Shown: piece after piece, positions 287 to 13,853 of the stretch
How the letters are laid out: the number at the start of each line of letters is the position of its first letter
How positions within the stretch are numbered: the stretch's first letter is position 1
Assembly: GCF_026151205.1 (NCBI RefSeq)
Contig: NC_087073.1
Location: 4,795,001 to 4,859,000, forward strand
Direction: 5' to 3'
Length of the DNA: 64,000 bases
DNA from: Bolinopsis microptera
Taxonomy: Eukaryota > Ctenophora > Tentaculata > Lobata > Bolinopsidae
Notes under the pieces: generated by a model
Told to the model about the DNA's origin: nothing
Seen by the model: only the letters and a program-made list of their open reading frames with translations
Database searches by the model: none
Position numbers and translations under genes: made by a program

Positions 287-704
287 CTTGATGGAGCTTT
301 TCTTATCAGATGGAGGAACTTTCTTTCTCGTCCGATCTTTCTTACTGGCTTGTGTTGGAGGTGGACTAAGTTTCCTAGTTTCTATCTGAAAATTAAAGGT
401 AGCAAACTATAACCTTTAAAGGTTGTACAAATAAGGTACAGTCGATGCCTAGTTTTGTCAAGTCAATAAATTCGCACATGTGTCTGAGCACCTGCATCAT
501 ATAAACTGAAAATAGTGGTAACTAACGAAGCAAACATAACTGATAAGACAGTGATAATGCTTACAAAAATCTTTCCATAGTCAGAGCCTTTATATCTGAG
601 TGCTTTATAAAACTTGGACCCAGAATCTACCAACTCCCCAAGTGTGCATGCTATTTCACCAAGAAATCTGCTTTGCTTATGTCATTTTCGTAGTCATCTA
701 TGTC
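287..704 (-). pseudogene. C2 array unit 0, truncated copine-type C2 exons
   Basis: The exon C homologue (287-385, 33 codons, intact frame, acceptor TTTCAG and donor AAG/GTTACA) is followed upstream on the minus strand by an exon B homologue starting at 565. Exon B homology stops abruptly near 704, about 140 of the usual 249 bases in. The 5' half of exon B and all of exon A are missing and unrelated sequence takes their place. A one-base deletion near 658 also shifts the frame. The unit cannot encode a C2 domain as it stands. It may be a real rearrangement or an assembly join. Confidence 0.7.
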
Positions 705-1115
705 TTCCCAACTTGAGATCCCTATTCTCAAGGCTAATCCAAACCTCATTTTCTTTGAAAGAGTTAACCCCCATGTCAACATCTTCGACCATCTAATCTA
801 GTTTCACACTCCTCTCAGCGGGGCTTTTCTTATATTCATCCCCATTTCTTCTACCCTCAGAGACATTTCTAAATACTCTGTAACCACAATCCATTACATT
901 AGACAACTCATCATCCGTTTAAAATATTACATCATCCTCGTTGAATCTCGAACCTGCAGGATCGATAAAAAATCACACTCTCACCCCAACCAGGTAGAGG
1001 CCATTGTATCTGGCCTCGGCCCTAACTTCGAATTTCTAGTTCTACCCCTCATCGCATCTCACATTTGTTTCTCTCAAGTTGGCAGCTTAAACTCTTATTC
1101 GATTGCACTTCCTTG
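705..1115. other. Foreign-looking segment replacing part of C2 unit 0
   Basis: This stretch has no counterpart in the other units but sits where exon B 5' half and exon A should be. Homology to the array resumes near 1110 (CTTGTACTTTTGT). On the plus strand, around 980-1060, it reads QVEAIVSGLGPNFEF, which resembles the conserved GLGPE/DF block of Ty1/copia gag (UBN2-type) proteins. There is no LTR or target duplication and the open stretch is short. The copia reading is tentative; a chimeric read or contaminant is an alternative. Confidence 0.3.
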
Positions 1116-1139
1116 TACTTTTGTCATCTCCTCATAATC

Positions 1140-1905
1140 TTCCCCCCCTCCGCTACCTCACCGACCCTCCCACTCCGCCTCACACCGAATCGCACTGTTA
1201 CCTTGCCCCCACTCCGACACTCCTCACTCCGACACCCCTCACTCCGTCACCCCCTCCACTCCGTCACCCCCCTCACTCCGTCACCCCTCACTCCGTCACC
1301 CCTCACTCCGTCACCCCTCACTCCGTCACCCCTCACTCCGTCACTCCTCACTCCGACCCACCCCTCACTCCGTCACCCCTCACTCCGTCACCCCTTACTC
1401 TCTCACTCCTCACTCCGACACCCCTAACTCCCATCACTCCTCACTCCGACACCCCTCACTCCGACACCCCCACTCCGTCACCCCCTCACTCCATCTCCCC
1501 TCACTACATCACCCCTCACTCCTCACTCCGACACCCCCTCATTCCATCACCCCCACTTCGTCACCCCTCACTCCATCACCCCCTCACTCCGTCACCCCTC
1601 ACTCCGACACCCCCCCACTCCGTCCCCCCCTCACTCCATCTCCCCTCACTCCATCACCCCTCACTACCGTCACTCCTCACTCCGACACCCCTCACTCCAT
1701 CACCCCCACTTCGTCACCCCCACCTCTCCGTCACCCCCACTTCGACACCCCCCTCACTCCGTCACCCCCACTCTGACACTCCTCACTCCGTCACCCCTCA
1801 CTCCGTCACTCCACACTCGACACCCCTCAACTGTCACCCCCTTACTCCCCACTTTCGTCACCCCTAGCCCTTACTCTCTCATCTCCTCATTATCTTACCC
1901 CCTCC
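1140..1905. repeat. 15-bp minisatellite, longest tract
   Basis: About 700 bp of variant copies of the CACCCCTCACTCCGT type, best preserved near 1265-1400. It lies between exon C of unit 1 and the segment to its left, in an intron or spacer position. Since 15 is a multiple of three, all frames stay open and give artificial SVTPH, RHPSL or TPSPL repeat peptides. Confidence 0.92.
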
Positions 1906-2016
1906 GGGCCCTCTCCCCTCAATATATCACTGCCTCGAATCAGCCCTAAATGAGGGAAAGTATTAATAAACTATTGCCCGTCAGTCTTTAGAAGATAACA
2001 ACGAAATAACTGTAAC

Positions 2017-2956
2017 CTTGATGGAGCTTTTCTATCAGATGGAGGAACCTTTCTTTCTCGTCCGATCTTTCTTACTGGCTTGTGTTGGAGGTGGACTAAG
2101 TTTCCTAGTTTCTATCTGAAAATTAAGGTAGCAAACTATAACCTTTAAAGGTGTACAAATAAGGTACAGTCGATGCCTAGTTTTGTCAAGTCAATAAATT
2201 CGCAACATGTGTCTGAGCACCTGCATCATATAAACTGAAAATAGTGGTAACTAACGAAGCAAACATAACTGATAAGACAGTGATAATGCTTACAAAAATC
2301 TTTCCATAGTCAGAGCCTTTATATCTGAGTGATTTATAAAACTTGGACCCAGAATCTACCAACTCCCCAAGTGTGCATGCTATTTCACCCAAGAAATCTG
2401 CTTTGCTTATGTCATTTTCGTAGTCATCTATGTCCCAAACTTTGATGATTAAATTTTGTTCTTCAGAGGGGACGTAGTCGAGAAAGATCTTTTCTTTGAA
2501 AGTAGGGTTTAACTCATTGTCAATACATTCTGTGCGACCTAGCTGAAGGTTTTATGTGTTCAATGTCCATAGCAAAGGGGGGGCTTTATCATTATAGTTG
2601 ATTATTCTTTTCTACATTTGCCAGGGAGGAAGATTTCGTTTAAAAATAGCAGTTCTGATAAACTAACAATTTAGTTACAAATATAGGTAAAAACTAGCAC
2701 TACATATTACGTATTTAAAATATAATGATTTTCAAACATACCTCGTTGTTGAATTCGTCGAATACCGTGACAAGAGGATCAGATTTAGAGAATAAATCAG
2801 CATCTCTCAGACCAGTACAGGATATGGTTAGTTGGACAGTCTGTTTATTGCTGGGGACCTGGCCCTAAGTTACAGGTAAGTTTATTTCTAGATTCTTACC
2901 TCCTTGCAAGTACGCAGTCCATGCAATTTAGTTTTCTTCATGCAGAGTTGAGACAT
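2017..2956 (-). CDS. C2 array unit 1 (copine-type C2 exons)
   Basis: Minus-strand exons are start exon 2900-2956 (19 codons), A 2742-2864 (41 codons, SCTGLRDAD...SKSDPLVTV), B 2294-2542 (83 codons, LGRTECIDNELNP...DFLGEIACTLGELVDSG) and C 2017-2115 (Lys-rich linker). A plus B match the calcium-binding C2A type of copines, which dock on membrane phospholipids; SKSDP and WDIDD carry candidate Ca2+ ligands. All junctions are phase 0. In this unit exon C has a one-base gain and a one-base loss that cancel in length but put TGA-TAG in frame between them, so either the linker ends early or these are read errors. It may be an exon set of a larger gene rather than a gene of its own. Confidence 0.55.
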
Positions 2957-3039
2957 AGTTTTAAAACTCTTGAGGTGTAACGATATGCAGCATTCTCTTT
3001 GTACTTTTGTAACACATCCTCAACAACCAACTTCCCCCC

Positions 3040-3335
3040 ACTCCGCTACCCTCACTCCATCACTCCCACTCCGTCACCCCTCACTCCGTCCCCCCTCACT
3101 CTGTCCCCCACTCCGACACTCCTCACTCCGACACCCCTCACTCCGTCACCCCTCACTCCGTCACCCCTCACTCCGTCACCCCTCACTCCGTCACCCCTCA
3201 CTCCGTCACCCCTCACTCCGTCACCCCTCACTCCGTCACTCCTCACTCCGACACCCCTCACTCCGTCACCCCTCACTCCGTCACCCCTCACTCCGTCACC
3301 CCTTACTCTCTCACTCCTTATTATCTTACCCCGTC
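3040..3335. repeat. 15-bp minisatellite between C2 units 1 and 2
   Basis: About 18 close copies of CACCCCTCACTCCGT, the most uniform tract in the array. Overlapping open frames on both strands here (plus TPSPL/RHPSL, minus VRGDG) follow from the 15-bp period and are not genes. Confidence 0.92.
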
Positions 3336-3370
3336 CAGTCTTTAGAAGATAACAACGAAATAACTGTAAC

Positions 3371-4313
3371 CTTGATGGAGCTTTTCTTATCAGAGACAGA
3401 AGGAGGAACTTTCTTTCTCGTCCGATCTTTCTTACTGGCTTGTGGTGGAGGTGGACTAAGTTTCCTAGTTTCTATCTGAAAATTAAGGTAGCCAACTATA
3501 ACCTTTAAAGGTGTACAAATAAGGTACAGTCCATGCCTAGTTTTGTCAAACTGTCAATAAATTCGCAACATGTGTCTGAGCACCTACATCATAACTGAAA
3601 ATAGTGGTAACTAACGAATAAAACATAACTGATAAGACAGTGATAATGCTTACAAAAATCTTTCCATAGTCAGAGCCTTTATATCTGAGAGCTTTATAAA
3701 ACTTGGACCCAGAATCTACCAACTCCCCAAGCGTGCATGCTGTTTCACCCAAGAAATCTGCTTTGCTTATGTCATTTTCGTAGTCATCTATGTCCCAAAC
3801 TTTGATGATTAAATTTTGTTCTTCAGAGGGGACGTAGTCGAGAAAGATCTTTTCATTGAAAGTAGGGTTTAACTCATTGTCAATACATTCTGTGCGACCT
3901 AGCTGAAGGTTTCATGTGTTCAATGTCCATAGTGAGGGAGGGGCTTTATCATTATAGTGAATGTATTCTTTTGTACATTTGCCAGGGATGCAGATTTCGT
4001 TAAAAAATAGCAGTTCTGATAAACTAACAATATAGTTACAAATATAGGTAAAAACTAGCACTACATATTATTTGAAATGTAATGATTTTCAAACATACCT
4101 CGTTGTTGAATTCGTCGAATACCGTGACAAGAGGATCAGATTTAGAGAATAAATCAGCATCTCTCAGACCAGTACAGGATATGGTTAGTTGGACAGTCTG
4201 TTTATTGCTGGGGACCTGGCCCTAAGTTACAGGTAAGTTTATTTCTAGGTTCTTACCTCCTTGCAAGTACGCAGTCCATGCAATTTAGTTTTCGTCATGC
4301 AGAGTTGAGACAT
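3371..4313 (-). CDS. C2 array unit 2 (copine-type C2 exons)
   Basis: Same order as the other units: start exon 4257-4313, A 4099-4221, B 3654-3902, C 3371-3475. All joins are phase 0 with GT/AG ends and all frames are open. Exon C is two codons longer than in its sisters (105 against 99 bases), an in-frame expansion in the PPSDKK region. Exon B has a Thr for Ile in the GEIACTLGE motif. A plus B encode a full copine-type C2 sandwich. No own promoter or poly(A) signal was recognised, so it is open whether this is a separate small gene or a cassette of a long multi-C2 gene. Confidence 0.6.
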
Positions 4314-4399
4314 AGTTTTAAAACTCTTGAGGTGTAAGGATATGCAGCATTCTCTTTGTACTTATGTAACACATCCTAAACAACCAATTTCCTCAATAG

Positions 4400-4830
4400 T
4401 TCACTCCCTTGTTCCCTCACTATCTCATCCCATTAATATCTCAACCCTCACCCCCACTCCGTCACCCCTCACTGAATCACCCCTCACTCCGTCATCCCTC
4501 ACTCCGTCACCCCTTACCCCGTCACTCGACCCCCACTCCATCACCCCTCACTCAATCACCCCCACTCCGACACCCCTCACTCCATCACCCCTCACTCCGT
4601 CATCCCTCACTCCGTCACCCCCACTCCGTCACCCCTTACCCCGTCACTCGACCCCCACTCCATCACCCCTCACTCCATCACCCCTCACTCCATCACCCCT
4701 CACTCCGTCACCCCTCACCCCTCAACATGTCACCCCTTACTCCCCACTTCGTCACCCCTGTCCCCTTACTTTCTCACCTCCTCATTATCTTACCCCCTCC
4801 GGGCCCTCACCCCTCAATATCCCACTGCCT
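4400..4830. repeat. 15-bp minisatellite between C2 units 2 and 3
   Basis: Degenerate CACCCCTCACTCC(G/A)T copies with TCATCC and CCCTTACCCCG variants. A larger block near 4500-4560 recurs near 4615-4670, a higher-order repeat. The tract ends in the TTATCTTACCCCCTCCGG block shared by most units. Confidence 0.9.
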
Positions 4831-4913
4831 CGAATCAGCTAAATGAGGGAAATTATGTATTAATAAACTATTGGGGTCCAGTCTTTAGAAGATAACAACG
4901 AAATAACTGTTAC

Positions 4914-5847
4914 CTTGATGGAGCTTTTCTTATCAGAAGGAGGAACTTTCTTTCTCGTCCGATCTTTCTTACTGGCTTGTGGTGGAGGTGGACTAAGTTT
5001 CCTAGTTTCTATCTGAAAATTAAGGTAGCCAACTATAACCTTTAAAGGTGTACAAATAAGGTACAGTCGATGCTTAGTTTTGTCAAGTCAATAAATTCGC
5101 AACATGTGTCTGAGCACCTACATCATAACTGAAAATAGTGGTAACTAACGAAGCAAACATAACTGATAAGACAGTGATAATGCTTACAAAAATCTTTCCA
5201 TAGTCAGAGCCTTTATATCTGAGAGCTTTATAAAACTTGGACCCAGAATTTACCAACTCCCCAAGCGTGCATGCTATTTCACCCAAGAAATCTGCTTTGC
5301 TTATGTCATTTTCGTAGTCATCTATGTCCCAAACTTTGATGATTAAATTTTGTTCTTCAGAGGGGACGTAGTCGAGAAAGATCTTTTCATTGAAAGTAGG
5401 GTTTAACTCATTGTCAATACATTCTGTGCGACCTAGCTGAAGGTTTCATGTGTTCAATGTCCATAGTGAGGGAGGGGCTTTATCATTATAGTGAATGTAT
5501 TCTTTTGTACATTTGCCAGGGATGCAGATTTCGTTAAAAAATAGCAGTTCTGATAAACTAACAATATAGTTACAAATATAGGTAAAAACTAGCACTACAT
5601 ATTATTTGAAATGTAATGATTTTCAAACATACCTCGTTGTTGAATTCGTCGAATACCGTGACAAGAGGATCAGATTTAGAGAATAAATCAGCATCTCTCA
5701 GACCAGTGCAGGATATGGTTAGTTGGACAGTCTGTTTATTGCTGGGGACCTGGCCCTAAATTACAGGTTAGTTTATTTATAGATTCTTACCTCCTTGCAA
5801 GTACGCAGTCCATGCAATTTAGTTTTCTTCATGCAGAGTTGAGACAT
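4914..5847 (-). CDS. C2 array unit 3 (copine-type C2 exons)
   Basis: Exons on the minus strand: start exon 5791-5847, A 5633-5755, B 5188-5436, C 4914-5012. All are intact, phase 0, and almost identical to unit 4, which points to recent duplication or gene conversion. The C2 domain runs from SNKQTVQLTISC in exon A to YGKIF at the end of exon B; exon C adds the PPPPQASKKDRTRKK linker. Upstream intron sequence (AAATAGCAGTTCTGATAAAC) is shared with all units. Function by family: Ca2+-dependent phospholipid binding. Confidence 0.62.
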
Positions 5848-5964
5848 AGTTTTAAAACTCTCGAGGTGTAACGATATAATGCATCATTCTCTTTGTACTT
5901 TTGTAACACATCCTCAACAACCAACTTCCCCAATAGTTCACTCCCTTAGTCCCTTGTTCTCTCA

Positions 5965-6310
5965 CTATCTCATCCCATTAATATCTCAACCCTCACCCCC
6001 ACTCCGTCACCCCTGCCTCTATCACCCCCACTCCGACAGTCGACACCCCTCACTCCATCACCCCCACTCCGTCAACCCTCACTCTGACACCCCTCACTCC
6101 GTCACCCCTCACTCAATCACCCCTCACTCCGTCACTCCTCACTCTGACACCCCTCACTCCCACTCCGTCACCCCTTACTCCATCACCCCCCACTCCATCA
6201 CCCCTCAACTTGTCACCCCTTACTCCCCACTTCGTCACCCCTGTCCCCTTACTTTCTCACCTCCTCATTATCTTACCCCCTCCGGACCCTCACCCCTCAA
6301 TATCTCACTG
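5965..6310. repeat. 15-bp minisatellite between C2 units 3 and 4
   Basis: Short and degenerate tract of the same 15-mer family, ending in the same TATCTTACCCCCTCCGG block as its sisters. Confidence 0.88.
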
Positions 6311-6396
6311 CCTCGAATCAGCTAAATGAGGGAAATTATGTATTAATAAACTATTGGGGTCCAGTCTTTAGAAGATAACAACGAAATAACTGTTAC

Positions 6397-7330
6397 CTTG
6401 ATGGAGCTTTTCTTATCAGAAGGAGGAACTTTCTTTCTCGTCCGATCTTTCTTACTGGCTTGTGGTGGAGGTGGACTAAGTTTCCTAGTTTCTATCTGAA
6501 AATTAAGGTAGCCAACTATAACCTTTAAAGATGTACAAATAAGGTACAGTCGATGCCTAGTTTTGTCAAGTCAGTAAAGTCGCAATAAGTTTCTGAGCAC
6601 CTACATCATAACTGAAAATAGTGGTAAGTAATGAAGCAAACATAACTGATAAGACACTGATAATACTTACAAAAATCTTTCCATAGTCAGAGCCTTTATA
6701 TCTGAGAGCTTTATAAAACTTGGACCCAGAATCTACCAACTCCCCAAGTGTGCATGCTATTTCACCCAAGAAATCTGCTTTGCTTATGTCATTTTCGTAG
6801 TCATCTATGTCCCAAACTTTGATGATTAAATTTTGTTCTTCAGAGGGGACGTAGTCGAGAAAGATCTTTTCTTTGAAAGTAGGGTTTAACTCATTGTCAA
6901 TACATTCTGTGCGACCTAGCTGAAGGTTTCATGTGTTCAATGTCTATAGTGAGGGAAGGGCTTTATCATTATAATGGATGTATTTTTTTCTACATTTGCC
7001 AGGGAGGAAGATTTCGTTTAAAAATAACAGTTCTGATAAACTAACAATATAGTTAAAAATATAGGTAAAAACTAGCACTACATATTATTTGAAATGTAAT
7101 GATTTTCAAACATACCTCGTTGTTGAATTCGTCGAATACCGTGACAAGAGGATCAGATTTAGAGAATAAATCAGCATCTCTCAGACCAGTGCAGGATATG
7201 GTTAGTTGGACAGTCTGTTTATTGCTGGGGACCTGGCCCTAAATTACAGGTTAGTTTATTTATAGATTCTTACCTCCTTGCAAGTACGCAGTCCATGCAA
7301 TTTAGTTTTCTTCATGCAGAGTTGAGACAT
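6397..7330 (-). CDS. C2 array unit 4 (copine-type C2 exons)
   Basis: This is the first unit downstream of the parent gene on the minus strand. Exons: start exon 7274-7330 (Met-Ser-Gln-Leu-Cys, donor GAG/GTAAGAATC), A 7116-7238, B 6671-6919, C 6397-6495. Frames and phases are intact. The gap between start exon and exon A is only 35 bp, very short for an animal intron, so the start exon is doubtful. Exon A (acceptor ATTTAG) would equally accept splicing from exon G of the parent gene (8351-8508), which also ends in phase 0. Confidence 0.6.
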
Positions 7331-8036: not shown

Positions 8037-11000
8037 TCATGAGGTTTGATGATGTTCATGCCATTTAGCAAATCCTGGAGACATGGCGATGGTTAGTCTC
8101 ATGTCATTACATGCTTCGTGAGCAAAAAAACAGAGTAAATTAGCAAGTAAGTTAGCAAAGATCCCATCATGCCAAGCCAACTTCAGCTGAAAAGTGTAAT
8201 GAAGGTGCAGGGAATCTTTAGGAGTTCTCGAAATTCCGAGAACCCCCATGCTAACCCACACCGCACCCCTACTCATTGAAAACAATAAGTACTTAAAAGA
8301 ATGAATATTGAGTAGTGAGTAATTATTTTTGATCACGGTACGGTACATACATTTCTCCAAATGGGCGAGGTAGCAGTGCTGACAGTAGCCTTATGATTCG
8401 CTGGAGTCATGGCAGTTCCAGTGTTCATGAGTCCTGCTCCTGATAAACTGGGGTAGACAGGTTTGTAGCCTGTCTTCAGCTCTTCGTAGGTATCTTCTTC
8501 TTGTATCACTATGTTATGGTGGCAGTAAGTCTACAACAAGAAAGATATCAGGTAGAGTTAAAGAAAACAAAGCGAAAATAAAGTGAAATAAAGTGAAATA
8601 AAGCGAAAATAAAGTGAAAAAAGATGAAAATAAGGTCACTAACGGTATTCCCCAGTCAGATGACTGAAAGTATCAGATTCACGTTGCTGCTTCAGAGTGT
8701 TCGGTTCTGTTGAGTGAGGGGTGATGCAGGAAATTTCGTCGAGGGGAGTTAGGGACATGTCGTATAAACTCTGGGAATTTTGGGGCAAGTGAGCTTTGTG
8801 GGGCAAGTGGGGATTGTGGGACAATCGAGGAGCGTCGATTTGAAGTTTAACCACCACTTTGGTAACCTTATTGCGCCGAGAAAACATCTGCTCTACTACG
8901 AGAACTATAAGGTTTGCAACTGACAATGAGAAAATGCAAGAAGATTTAAAGGGAAGTGGAAATTATGACAATGAACTCACGCTCTTCGTGGGAATGAAGT
9001 GGAATGGTTTAGAGTTAGACCCGTTAGCTGATTTGAATTGCTCGTCTGAGTCGTTTATGCCGGGGTCTGAGAGATAGCCTCCACTTCCTGTAATATTTTC
9101 TGAAACAATAACATCAATACAAAGAAAAGCGGTATTACCAATTACTACCAATCTACTCATGTAAAAAATAGAGTTAGTAAGCTATTATATGAGGAAATGT
9201 GACCCCCCCCCCCCTTGTTACTACTTAGATTCCTCAGTCTCACAACTGATTTCTGAACTGTACCTGCAGCTTGACGGATGGGGTGCTCAACGGGAGTAAA
9301 CTTGGACTCCTGTTCGTCAGTTGGAGTGTACCTCTCTGCACTGGGTATAAAACCTTGCGTCATCATCGTATCTGAAGGACCCATCGCTAAAGATTCCTCT
9401 ATTTCTTCATCCCTAGTTTCATCCTCTTCCGACTTAACGGATTTAAACGTATCGTCCACTTCTGCCATCTCACTTTTTACTTCTGTCACCTCACTTTTTA
9501 TCCAGGTATCATTTTTGATCTAAAAATAGATCTAATTGTGGATGGTTTTTATGACTCATAACGTACCTAGGAAACTTAATTTATAGTAGTGGCACTTTAA
9601 AAGAGGGGTTTATAAAATTTCGACTCATAATATTATTATGGTGACTGCAATTTAGCAGTATTGGTAAGTTGAACAGCTTTATCTTGCTATCTTATCCAAT
9701 AGAAACTGCAACATCGGTCATTTGATACTATCAATTTACAAAACATACGGATCAGAGCAAAAGGTTGGACACAAAAGAAATCAAAACGATGAAAATGACA
9801 ATGATGATGATGTAAAAAACCGTCCAGATTTCGAAGTTTAACTTCAAGTTCTGTACCATGATAAACCAAATATTCTTGAAATGAGTGTGTTCGTACAGAG
9901 AGCATCATTTTTTAGCTCTAATAGATGTGATAACACAGTTGATTGATCCAGGAATGGCCACCAATAAGAGACAATCTGATTGAGTGAATGTTGAAGGATT
10001 GGTGTGGAGTCTTTACAGAAGGAAAGTAGTAGTAATTAAAAAAATTGTAACCTCTTTGGAATTTTTCTTTTGAGAAGCAGTTATTTCTTCCCCTTTCTCC
10101 CCTTTCTTCCCTTTCTTCCCCTTCTTGCCTTTCTTAGCAGCTTTTTGAGGAGGTGGATTAAGCTTTTCAGTTTTTATCTGAAAAGTCAAGGAATTAACAA
10201 CTTGAAGCACATAAGATACACAAATCAGTTAAACAAAAATTCAGTTAAACAAAAATTCAATTTTATGCCATTTATTACAGAGTAAACAAGTTTACAATAA
10301 ATCAATTTGATATTTAAAGGAATCCTAATTCAATGTGTAGTATGGTTGTCACTCTTTAAATAGATTAGATATAGGTTGACGGGGCAAAGGAGTGTGCGTG
10401 CTGTTCGCTATTGCTCACACCAAACGGCAACCTAGTAAATGTTTTGTATGGACACCGGTCTCCATCACGATACAAAATTAGGATTGTAGAATTTATTGTA
10501 TAACTTTTAGTGCAGTGGAGGAAGCGGTGTGGTGCATTAATAGAGTGACAGCCTACTGATTTAGAGTTGTTTTTAAGTGAGCATAATGGGTATATTTTTG
10601 GACCTAAAGGCTTTACTATGGCAACTTTAAAATTGGTTCTTTTAATCATTTATTAAATATCACTTTAAAAATATATAAATCTGGAATCTGTTCACACTGT
10701 GAACCAGTCCTATAAAAAAAACCTCTTAAATCAAATATTTAAAACGTCTCAATAATGGAAATAGTCATACAATTAAGAAATTTACCAAATTCTTAATATC
10801 TACCTTAAGAGAAAAATACCTACCTAAGTCAATGTCTACCTGTAATACACTAAATATTAGGTTAAATACATAGGTGGTGGAGTCAGCACACATTTACCAA
10901 AATCAAAAATTTTTTAATAGGAGGAACCTGTGGGCCGAGAACACTGGATTAAATTTGTTGAAGGGGATTGTTTTCAAATGACAGCTGCATTATGTCATAA

Positions 11001-13853
11001 TCGCTTGAAGTCCATGCTGAATCATTATAAGCCTTTTTCAGGCGACTTTTAGCAAGGCTAATCTTGTAGGAGTAGTCAAAAAGCTTAAGTTTAGGTGCAA
11101 TTGTGCTCCAAATTTTTGTGGATCTTGATATGAAGTCATTAGATGGGAGTTGTGAAATGAGAGTGGTTTCCTTTCTAGAAGATGGCTGATAATGCTGTTG
11201 CAGTGATGCTGGGCACCTTAATTTCAGTATTTTAAAAACTTCCATAAAAGTGTGATATGTATATAAATTTTTGAAAGCCAGGATGTTTTGTTGCTTGAAA
11301 AGTGGTTTACAGTGCTCTAGTTGGAAGAATGTATGGTCAAGTGCCTGGTTGTCAAACTCTCTTGTTCTTGCACATGTTAGGAACTTGTTTAGGTATGCCT
11401 CTTTATCACCAAAGAGGACCCGTATGCAGTGCTTCTGAGACAGCCAGATACTTGCTGTCCTAAAGAGTGCTGCATCACCCCAAACTGAGATACAATATGT
11501 AAGGTGGGATTCAAATAGTGTGTGGTAGAGGTCTTTATGGAGTTCCTTCGGTACAGAGTCCCTAATTCTATTTAAGGTGGCAGAGGCATAGTTTAACTTT
11601 CGTTTAAGTGCTGTTATATGAGGCCCCCAGGAAAGCTGTTCGTCAATAACAACTCCAAGAAACTTTGTTGCTTTGGTTTTTTTAATTGGAAAGCCATCAA
11701 TATGGAGTTGAAGCGAATCTGGAAATTCTACTGGTTTACTAGCCTTTGGTTTAAAATGCATATAACAGCACTTTGACATGTTGATGTGTAGTTTGTTAAG
11801 GATCATATACTTTTTTATACAGCTAAGCAATTTGTTGCCTTTCTCATAAGCTTCTTCTACAGTTTTGCCATTAATAAAAATGTTGGTGTCGTCGGCAAAT
11901 AGTATGAAAGTTCCTAATTCTGAGGAATTGGCAATATCATTTACATGTATAGAAGAAAAAGGAGCGGTCCCAAAACAGAGCCTTGTGGAACACCATATTT
12001 AATGATAAGGTTTTCGGATTTTTCATTAAGGACTTCTGTGTACTGTGTTCTATTTGATAAGTAGCTTTTAATGAGACAGTTTGCATTGCCTCTTATTCCA
12101 TACCTATCTAGTTTTGTTAGGAGTGTACTATGGTCGATTGTATCAAATGCTTTACTCAAATCTATAAATATTCCTAGAACATGGTTTCGTTTTTTTATGC
12201 TCTCTTCAATAATTCTAACAGAGTAGTTAACAGCATTGCTAGTAGAATGGGACTTGCGGAAGCCAAATTGGTTTTCATCAAGGATATTTTGTGACACAGC
12301 GAAACTATATATACGGCTGTATATCACTTTTTCAAATATCTTACCAAATATGGGCAGAGTAGAGACAGGTCTGTAGTTTCCTACATCCTCTTCGTTTCCT
12401 TTCTTAAATATAGGAGTAACTTTCCACAAATGCGGTTAACAGTAGTCCTTAACAGTAGTCCTTGTGTGTAAATACTAGGTACAAGGAGAACAGTTATCGG
12501 CAGAACCACCCGAGAAGTCTGGGCTCTGGCAAAGCGCCATTTAAAAAAAATCTATTCGGTAAAATCTATTCTAAGTCAAAAACTTACACAATATTAGATA
12601 TTGTTGAAACTATTAAAAATTATTAAAATATAGCTATTGAACAAGCATAGCTGAGCACAGTTATAATTGCCTTTAGGATTGTAAAGTTAAAATTATCATA
12701 TTAATGCACTTTCTGAGTTGTAAGAGTGGAAACAGGCGCATAGCTAGGCTCAAGCTAGCTAGCTATTTCAAAATTTTGTATTTACGACTGTTATCAGTCG
12801 CATAGCATCATGCCGTTGTTGCAGGTGAATTGTTGACAGTGTAACTGAGATGGTATGCTATCGTGGGCTATCATGGCTTAAAAATCTCTTCTTTTTTTCA
12901 AATGATTGAATCACTTTCTTGTATGTGCACTGTTCAGCGCTAAACAGGACAAAAAATGGCTCATTAGAATTTGCATAGTTCAAGTTGGAACATGTTATAT
13001 TGAACGCTGTGATTTGGAAAATTGAACAGCCTCATTTCTTGTTTCAACAAAAATAAACTGAAAATGCTTACGAAGATCTTTCCGTAGTCAGTGCCTTCGT
13101 ATCTGAGAGCTTTGGAAAACTTTGCTCCGGAATCTACTAGCTCTTCAAGTGTGCATGCGATTTCACCCAAAAAATCTGCTTTGGTAATGTCATTTTCGTA
13201 GTCATCAATGTCCCAAACTTTGATGATTAACTTTTGTTCTTCATAAGGGTCGTAATCAAGAGTAATCTTTTCTTTAAAAACAGGATTCAACTCATTGTCA
13301 ATACATTCTGTGCGTCCCAACTGAGAGTGTTATCTTTTCAAAAGTCATGATAAGCAGGATTAATTTTAGGATGAAAATGCTTACTAATGTAACGTTTATT
13401 TGGGTTATTTTCCTAAATTTATTGTTTAAATGCCTTAAATTTTAAAGACATTTTATTTCCACATATAATAGCGCTAGCATTTGATAATATTCCTAATATT
13501 TGTCCATAATGTCTGAACTGATAAAAAAGTGCATAATCTTGATATTTCCACACTAAGTCTTGCTTGAATGACTTAAATGTACATCTTTGTTGGTAATATT
13601 TTAATGTCGAAGCGTGTAATTAATGTTAAATATTTAATTATTTAAATTGGCACAGGATGAAAATTAATCATTAATTACCAAATTGATATTTGATTACGAA
13701 ATAGCAGCAAAAATTAGATTTGACTTGAAATCATGTTGAACTTACCTCATTGTTGAATTCATCAAATATAGTGACAAGAGGGTCAGACTTAGAAAAGAAA
13801 TCAGCATCTCTCAAACCAGTGCAGGAGAGGGTAAGCTGGACTTTCTGTTTCAT
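8037..13853 (-). CDS. Copine-like single-C2 protein, likely parent of the array
   Basis: Eight exons join in frame to 469 codons: 13746-13853 (Met-Lys-Gln-Lys-Val start), 13072-13320, 10052-10177, 9264-9519, 8981-9099, 8644-8887, 8351-8508 and 8037-8186 (stop). Residues 1-119 form a copine-type C2 domain (SCTGLRDADFFSKSDP, LGRTECIDNELNP, DFLGEIACTLEEL). Then come a Lys/Gly-rich block (KKGKKGKKGKKGEKGEE), an acidic Ser/Thr-rich stretch and a Pro/His-rich tail with no recognised domain. The copine second C2 and vWA domains are not seen. The C2 exons have the same lengths and phases as those of the array downstream. The last exon is the weakest call; the transcript could instead run on into array exon A. 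A LINE sits between exons 2 and 3. Ca2+/lipid binding is inferred from the family. Confidence 0.6.
10930..12430 (-). mobile_element. 5'-truncated CR1/Jockey-type LINE in an intron
   Basis: The reverse transcriptase runs from 12429 (IFKKG...NYRPVS, FIDLSKAFDTIDH, GVPQGSVLGPLLF) and, after a frame break near 11940, continues with FADDTNIF and the thumb and C-terminal region down to 10949. YRPVS, the first Asp in DLSKAFD, and FADD mark an RT of the Jockey/CR1 supergroup. The endonuclease half is missing, as expected of a 5'-truncated insertion. The frame break makes it inactive. It lies in the intron between exons 2 and 3 of the copine-like gene, on the same strand. Confidence 0.85.

What the first reader, a model, noticed from the sequence alone, without database searches (positions are those of the whole stretch)
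287..7330. Tandem array of copine-type C2 modules with all-symmetric phase-0 exons
Four complete units and one broken unit each hold exons A, B and C with identical lengths (123, 249 and about 99 bases) and phase 0 at every junction. Any number of modules can therefore be joined, skipped or exchanged without a frame shift. With the parent gene upstream ending an exon in phase 0, one transcript could carry several C2 domains joined by Lys-rich linkers, or the exons could be used alternatively. A multi-C2 protein of copine type made by exon cassettes is not something I know described. Array behaviour is inference; exon structure is seen.
Basis: partly seen in the sequence, partly recalled or inferred. 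Interest (0 to 1): 0.8.

Follow-up and report, generated by a model that had tools for sequence, protein, structure and literature searches.

The report
C2 module array before PARG-WWE gene
In an unnamed animal-like genome, the first exons of one gene (a calcium-sensor-like C2 domain ahead of a domain resembling enzymes that remove ADP-ribose) are repeated seven times in a row, mostly with the reading frame kept, so the gene might make proteins with several C2 domains, but no transcript has been seen and one of the seven copies is broken.

Summary
The exon array is real, but its meaning changes. The 123/249/99-base phase-0 exons exist as described, yet the array runs past the window: seven A-B-C units plus a remnant, minus strand, C2:4,788,947-4,802,330. 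Each unit has an ATG exon, A0 (57 nt, phase 0), before A. One of the four 'complete' units (2956-2017) has a frame-shifted exon C with two stops. The seventh unit runs on into exons matching microbial-type PARG (PF10021) and WWE. Best reading: tandem copies of the 5' end of one C2-PARG-WWE gene, probably by unequal exchange at 15-bp minisatellites (untested). The 'parent' looks like a separate gene; an inverted copy lies about 283 kb away. Exons vary less among units than introns (15/528 versus 55/405 columns, p=8e-10), though gene conversion may contribute. C-to-A joining is in frame; units 5-7, outside the window, give an open 3xC2 frame. Transcription and multi-C2 splicing are inference. 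The C2 is copine-like, but no copine vWA match lies at the locus.

The parts
7274..7330 (-). Unit 1 exon A0 (57 nt, ATG...GAG|gtaaga)
7116..7238 (-). Unit 1 exon A (123 nt)
6671..6919 (-). Unit 1 exon B (249 nt)
6397..6495 (-). Unit 1 exon C (99 nt, Lys/Pro-rich), donor AAG|gtaaca
5791..5847 (-). Unit 2 exon A0
5633..5755 (-). Unit 2 exon A
5188..5436 (-). Unit 2 exon B
4914..5012 (-). Unit 2 exon C
4257..4313 (-). Unit 3 exon A0
4099..4221 (-). Unit 3 exon A
3654..3902 (-). Unit 3 exon B
3371..3475 (-). Unit 3 exon C (105 nt, +6 in frame), donor AAG|gttaca
2900..2956 (-). Unit 4 exon A0
2742..2864 (-). Unit 4 exon A
2294..2542 (-). Unit 4 exon B
2017..2115 (-). Unit 4 exon C, frame-shifted (+1/-1) with two in-frame stops
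287..704 (-). Broken unit: 3' part of B with a 1-base loss (704-562) and an open exon C (385-287); no A0 or A match
1206..1840 (.). 15-bp minisatellite between unit 4 and the broken unit; similar repeats at 1-121, 3034-3308, 4448-4755, 5996-6242
13746..13853 (-). 'Parent' gene exon A with its own ATG (about 85% to array A)
13072..13320 (-). 'Parent' exon B
10052..10177 (-). 'Parent' exon C (126 nt, Lys-rich)
9264..9519 (-). 'Parent' probable exon D (acidic)
   Evidence: bounds read by eye; frame 97% alike in the copy
8981..9099 (-). 'Parent' probable exon E
   Evidence: bounds read by eye; frame 97% alike in the copy
8351..8530 (-). 'Parent' probable last exon; reads on to a stop 5 codons past the donor
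   Evidence: bounds read by eye; frame 98% alike in the copy

Best explanation
The array is the multiplied 5' end of a single gene that encodes a copine-like C2 domain, a basic linker, a microbial-type PARG-like (ADP-ribosyl hydrolase) domain and WWE domains. Shown: seven A0-A-B-C units plus a remnant, the seventh running on into the PARG and WWE exons. Inferred: unequal exchange at the 15-bp minisatellites multiplied and homogenised the units. Inferred function: transcription starts at the A0 of an intact unit; because A0 has no evident strong acceptor and A has one (both by eye), exon C splices to exon A of the next unit and finally to exon D of the PARG part, giving proteins with one to three (units 5-7) C2 copies ahead of PARG-WWE. 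Extra C2 modules, if they bind membranes in a Ca2+-dependent way as copine C2s do, would raise the avidity of an ADP-ribose hydrolase/reader for membranes. Unit 4's broken exon C separates units 1-4 from the PARG part unless it is skipped.
For: Seven units and terminal continuation. On exons that I joined: C2 53.9 bits (cut-off 22), PARG_cat_microb 37.6 bits (cut-off 23.5), WWE 92.6 bits in two stretches (cut-off 21.1). The terminal gene model joins A0-A-B-C-D in phase 0, with a C donor GAG|gttact like those of the array. Chains of units 1-3 (492 aa with A0) and 5-7 (490 aa with A0) have no stop. Exons A0+A+B+C vary at 15 of 528 columns against 55 of 405 in introns, Fisher p=8e-10 (C compared in units 1, 2, 3, 5, 6; intron 2 in units 1-6; the rest in all 7). 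A0 varies at 3 of 57 against 10 of 40 just upstream, p=0.007. 'Parent' versus the 7 units over A+B: dN 0.065-0.073, dS 0.838-0.928. No AATAAA or ATTAAA in the 4 spacers after units 1-4; the 2 after units 5 and 6 have one of each, the AATAAA lying in a MITE-like insert (my placement on the sequence). The D-E part and the PARG part were each found at this locus only.
Against: No transcript data. Unit 4 C carries stops and the next unit is a remnant, so the seven units cannot all be chained unless C4 is skipped. The A0-A intron would be only 35 nt, short for an animal (general knowledge). Among units, N versus S changes (9 of 340.7 versus 4 of 88.3 sites) do not differ significantly (p=0.31), and synonymous sites too vary less than introns (p=0.018), so exon conservation may partly be gene conversion, not protein selection. 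My terminal gene model loses the frame at one later junction (J-K), so the last WWE exons are tied to it by neighbourhood only. The PARG part is under the TIGR02452 cut-off, has no solved-structure match at E up to 1, and the exon-wise PF10021 genome search gave nothing. Spacers are GC-rich and no chance expectation was computed, so lack of poly(A) hexamers is weak evidence. Array exon C is 71/99 identical to the terminal C with dN 0.271, dS 0.759, so the linker is loosely constrained.
Confidence: 0.42

Rival explanations
1. Passenger duplicates: only the terminal gene (unit 7 + PARG-WWE) and the 'parent' are used; units 1-6 are recent copies multiplied at the minisatellite, kept alike by exchange and already decaying.
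For: Unit 4 C frame-shifted and one remnant; exon divergence of unit 1 from the other units is as low as that between the 'parent' and its copy (dS 0.011-0.023 versus 0.021); minisatellites between units; N versus S not different.
Against: Exons vary about 5-fold less than introns; 6 of 7 units have A, B and C without a stop, and the array-type C, old relative to the terminal C (dS 0.759), is open in 6 of 7 copies, the remnant's C included.
Confidence: 0.33
2. Each unit is a separate short gene (A0-A-B-C plus a read-through tail) with one C2.
For: Every unit has A0 with an ATG; reading past C gives the same 17-residue tail and a stop in units 1, 2 and 6.
Against: The tail differs in units 3, 4, 5 and 7; a GT donor follows C in all 7; no poly(A) hexamer after units 1-4; in my terminal gene model the homologous C is internal.
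Confidence: 0.15
3. One reading: the parent's exon at 8351 splices into the array, giving one parent-derived multi-C2 protein.
For: Phase 0 at both ends; only about 1.1 kb from 8351 to exon A of unit 1.
Against: The parent reads into a stop soon after 8351 (by eye) and its copy about 283 kb away has the gene without array-type units; the array has its own A0.
Confidence: 0.07

Closest known systems
Copines (tandem C2A-C2B + copine vWA)
   Same: C2 sequence is copine-like; plant copine BONZAI 1 is the best solved-structure match, and two loci of the same genome with Copine vWA exons are the nearest others.
   Different: One C2 per module and no PF07002 match at this locus; followed instead by PARG-like and WWE exons.
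Microbial-type PARG (DUF2263/PF10021) and WWE readers
   Same: PF10021 and WWE above their cut-offs on joined exons; EE after PGGEW in the hydrolase motif (by eye, motif recalled).
   Different: Under the NCBIfam TIGR02452 cut-off (26.7 versus 50 bits); placed behind a C2 module.
Multi-C2 proteins (ferlins, MCTPs, E-Syts; recalled)
   Same: Would carry several C2 domains in a row.
   Different: Those have diverged, fixed C2s (recalled); here modules are near-identical copies.
Tandem exon-module arrays and clustered first exons (Dscam-type, protocadherin/UGT1A-type; recalled)
   Same: Repeated exon cassettes ahead of a common 3' part.
   Different: Copies are near-identical, so they would change dose and number, not sequence variety.
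Tandem copine gene clusters (geoduck, PMC10729735, passages read)
   Same: Tandem duplication of copine-type sequence.
   Different: There copine-domain genes; here 5' exon modules of one gene.

Membership tests
Copine | Copine-type C2 domain | tested here: met
Copine | Two different C2 domains followed by a copine vWA domain (PF07002) | tested here: not met
   0 of 20 PF07002 matches lie at C2:4.77-4.81 Mb; exon-by-exon search, could miss weak exons
Copine | Ca2+-dependent membrane binding | not testable with these tools
   Acidic loop residues are present by eye (motif recalled)
Microbial-type PARG (PF10021) | Profile match above the curated cut-off | tested here: met
   37.6 versus 23.5 bits on exons joined by me; the whole-genome exon-wise search gave 0, with no control ringing; no solved-structure match at E up to 1
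Microbial-type PARG (PF10021) | NCBIfam TIGR02452 cut-off | tested here: not met
   26.7 versus 50 bits
WWE proteins | WWE domain above cut-off | tested here: met
   92.6 bits, two stretches, on the last three exons joined by me; single exons also match; the first WWE piece, next to PARG, is under the cut-off (15.7 bits)
Tandem symmetric exon cassette | Repeated exons with the same phase on both sides | tested here: met
   7 of 7 units have A+B+C lengths divisible by 3; 6 of 7 without a stop
Tandem symmetric exon cassette | Cassettes joined or exchanged in mRNA | not testable with these tools
   no transcripts available

The most novel reading that the evidence does not exclude
A living animal gene whose N-terminal C2 copy number is set by minisatellite-driven unequal exchange: transcripts start at any A0 and chain one to several near-identical phase-0 C2 modules in front of a PARG-WWE enzyme, so that individuals or alleles differ in the number of membrane-binding modules on an ADP-ribose hydrolase.
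Probability: 0.22. Interest if true: 0.7.

Novelty: new variant of a known kind. Interest (0 to 1): 0.42.

Why it matters
If chained, it would be a natural and probably recent series of C2 (Ca2+-sensor type) modules on an ADP-ribose hydrolase. I did not find this combination in print, but the search was small: open-access papers only, listings seen of 10 of 35, 10 of 148, 2 of 2, 6 of 6, 3 of 3 and 8 of 24 papers, plus passages of three of them. It would let module number versus membrane avidity be tested with native sequences. If not chained, it is a clear example of the first exons of a gene multiplied next to minisatellites.

Tried and rejected
Rejected: an ordinary copine gene cluster (no vWA match at the locus); chance repeats (99-100% identity over 123 nt and 98.8-100% over 249 nt); a parent-array fusion as the main reading; a chain of all seven units (stops at residues 624-625 of the joined frame). 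Led nowhere: whole-genome PF10021 search exon by exon (0 matches, no control rang; the protein query matches the locus it came from and no other); solved-structure search with the PARG part (0 at E up to 1); similarity beyond the parent's last donor in its copy (65 bases align at 89%, of which 44 lie past the donor). Organism: unnamed. The assembly size (264.65 Mb) fits the 265 Mb that PMC11797021 tabulates for the ctenophore Bolinopsis microptera (passage), and 5 Wnt loci (my grouping of 17 matches) would fit a ctenophore (low Wnt number recalled); this is a guess, and that paper lists 346 scaffolds for that species against 232 contigs here. A frame between parent exons E and G (within 8962-8642) was left out of the model because its phase does not join G (by eye).

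Dropped before counts: exon C of unit 4 (frame-shifted) and of unit 7 (different type) from the C column of the exon test; intron 2 of unit 7 likewise; the broken unit from that test. Without unit 4 altogether the test gives 13/528 versus 47/406, p=2e-8. The 9 N and 4 S changes cover A0, A and B only; I counted them by hand from the codon list (a codon with two base changes counted once) and typed them into. The 35-nt A0-A intron was measured (units 1-6; unit 7); one search took it as given.

Full report
What is there. The window is C2:4,795,001-4,859,000 of an unnamed 264.65-Mb genome. On the minus strand, exons A (123 nt), B (249 nt) and C (99 nt; 105 in unit 3) repeat. Adding 20 kb beyond the window start shows seven units with A, B and C and one remnant, over C2:4,788,947-4,802,330. 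A search of the whole genome with the exon B protein gave 12 matches: the 7 units, the remnant, the 'parent', its copy at C2:4524921, and two weaker ones at 53% and 48%; those two loci also have Copine vWA matches.

(1) Before A, all 7 units have a 57-nt frame that starts with ATG and ends at a GTAAG donor, in phase 0, 35 nt ahead of A (for units 1-6, for unit 7). There is no Met in A, B or C (translations), and a TAG stands directly before A in frame, so A needs such an exon. A0 is better conserved than the bases upstream (3/57 versus 10/40, p=0.007), and a DNA search with A0 and its flanks gave these 7 places only. (2) Unit 4's exon C is frame-shifted, with two stops. (3) The array ends, at unit 7, in exons of another kind.

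The downstream gene. After unit 7 come exons D and E joined in phase, then exons that match PARG_cat_microb (37.6 bits, cut-off 23.5), and further on WWE (92.6 bits, cut-off 21.1), all on exons joined by me. A WWE piece right after the PARG part is under its cut-off (15.7 bits). The D-E part and the PARG part were each found only here. My model loses the frame at one later junction (J-K), so the link to the last WWE exons is by neighbourhood, and the PARG part has no solved-structure match and is under the TIGR02452 cut-off. The array is thus best read as the front of this gene multiplied.

The 'parent'. Window 13853-8351 holds a gene with its own ATG, a C2 (54.8 bits), a Lys-rich exon and low-complexity exons (bounds by eye). 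It has an inverted copy at about C2:4,523-4,528 kb (dS 0.021, dN 0.003 over A+B+C). Good similarity ends about 44 bases after the last donor, and the frame stops 5 codons after it (by eye). It therefore looks complete, though its 3' end is not proved. Against the units, dN/dS is about 0.07-0.09 over A+B, so the two C2 types have long been under constraint.

How the array formed. Spacers hold 15-bp minisatellites. Units 2 and 3 are the closest pair (0.012 over A0 to B). Units 5 and 6 are both followed by a similar roughly 600-bp insert (read). Unit 7 shares A0 to B with the array but has a different intron 2 and C (C 71/99 identical to unit 1), which points to exchange inside units. Unequal exchange at the minisatellite is inference, and an assembly error in unit number was not excluded.

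Is it used? Among units, exons vary at 15 of 528 columns and introns at 55 of 405 (p=8e-10). That speaks for constraint, but N and S changes do not differ significantly (9 of 340.7 versus 4 of 88.3 sites, p=0.31), and S sites too vary less than introns (p=0.018), so gene conversion may contribute. A donor follows C in all 7 units (GTAACA in 4, GTTACA in 2, GTTACT in unit 7), and poly(A) hexamers are absent from the 4 spacers after units 1-4 but present in the 2 after units 5 and 6 (no chance expectation was computed). Units 1-3 chain without a stop (492 aa), as do 5-7 (490 aa); all seven do not.

Conclusion. The exon structure is confirmed with corrections. The best reading is a 5'-module array of a C2-PARG-WWE gene that may give one to three C2 copies; whether any transcript does so is unknown. 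The passenger-duplicate reading is nearly as likely.

Noticed in passing
window about 15155-8307 and about C2:4,523,031-4,527,700 (L003): Inverted segmental duplication of the 'parent' gene with upstream flank, about 283 kb apart.
   Followed up: partly
window about 12450-10930, minus strand: Reverse-transcriptase-like sequence (non-LTR type, by eye) in the parent's B-C intron; the copy in L003 lacks it, so it probably came after the duplication.
   Followed up: no
L002 about 8060-7490 and 5940-5310: MITE-like insert with CCGG-rich inverted ends (by eye) in the spacers after units 5 and 6.
   Followed up: no
L002 about 1-2000: Degenerate repeats ('TATCCTCTCCTGCTGTG'-like motif, by eye) in the 4-kb intron before the PARG exons.
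   Followed up: no
L001 about 3150-1690, plus strand: Cytochrome P450-like gene (by eye) next to the PARG-WWE gene.
   Followed up: no
C1:22546592-22555560 and C1:19098017-19103182: Two loci with both C2 and Copine vWA matches, i.e. ordinary copine candidates.
   Followed up: partly
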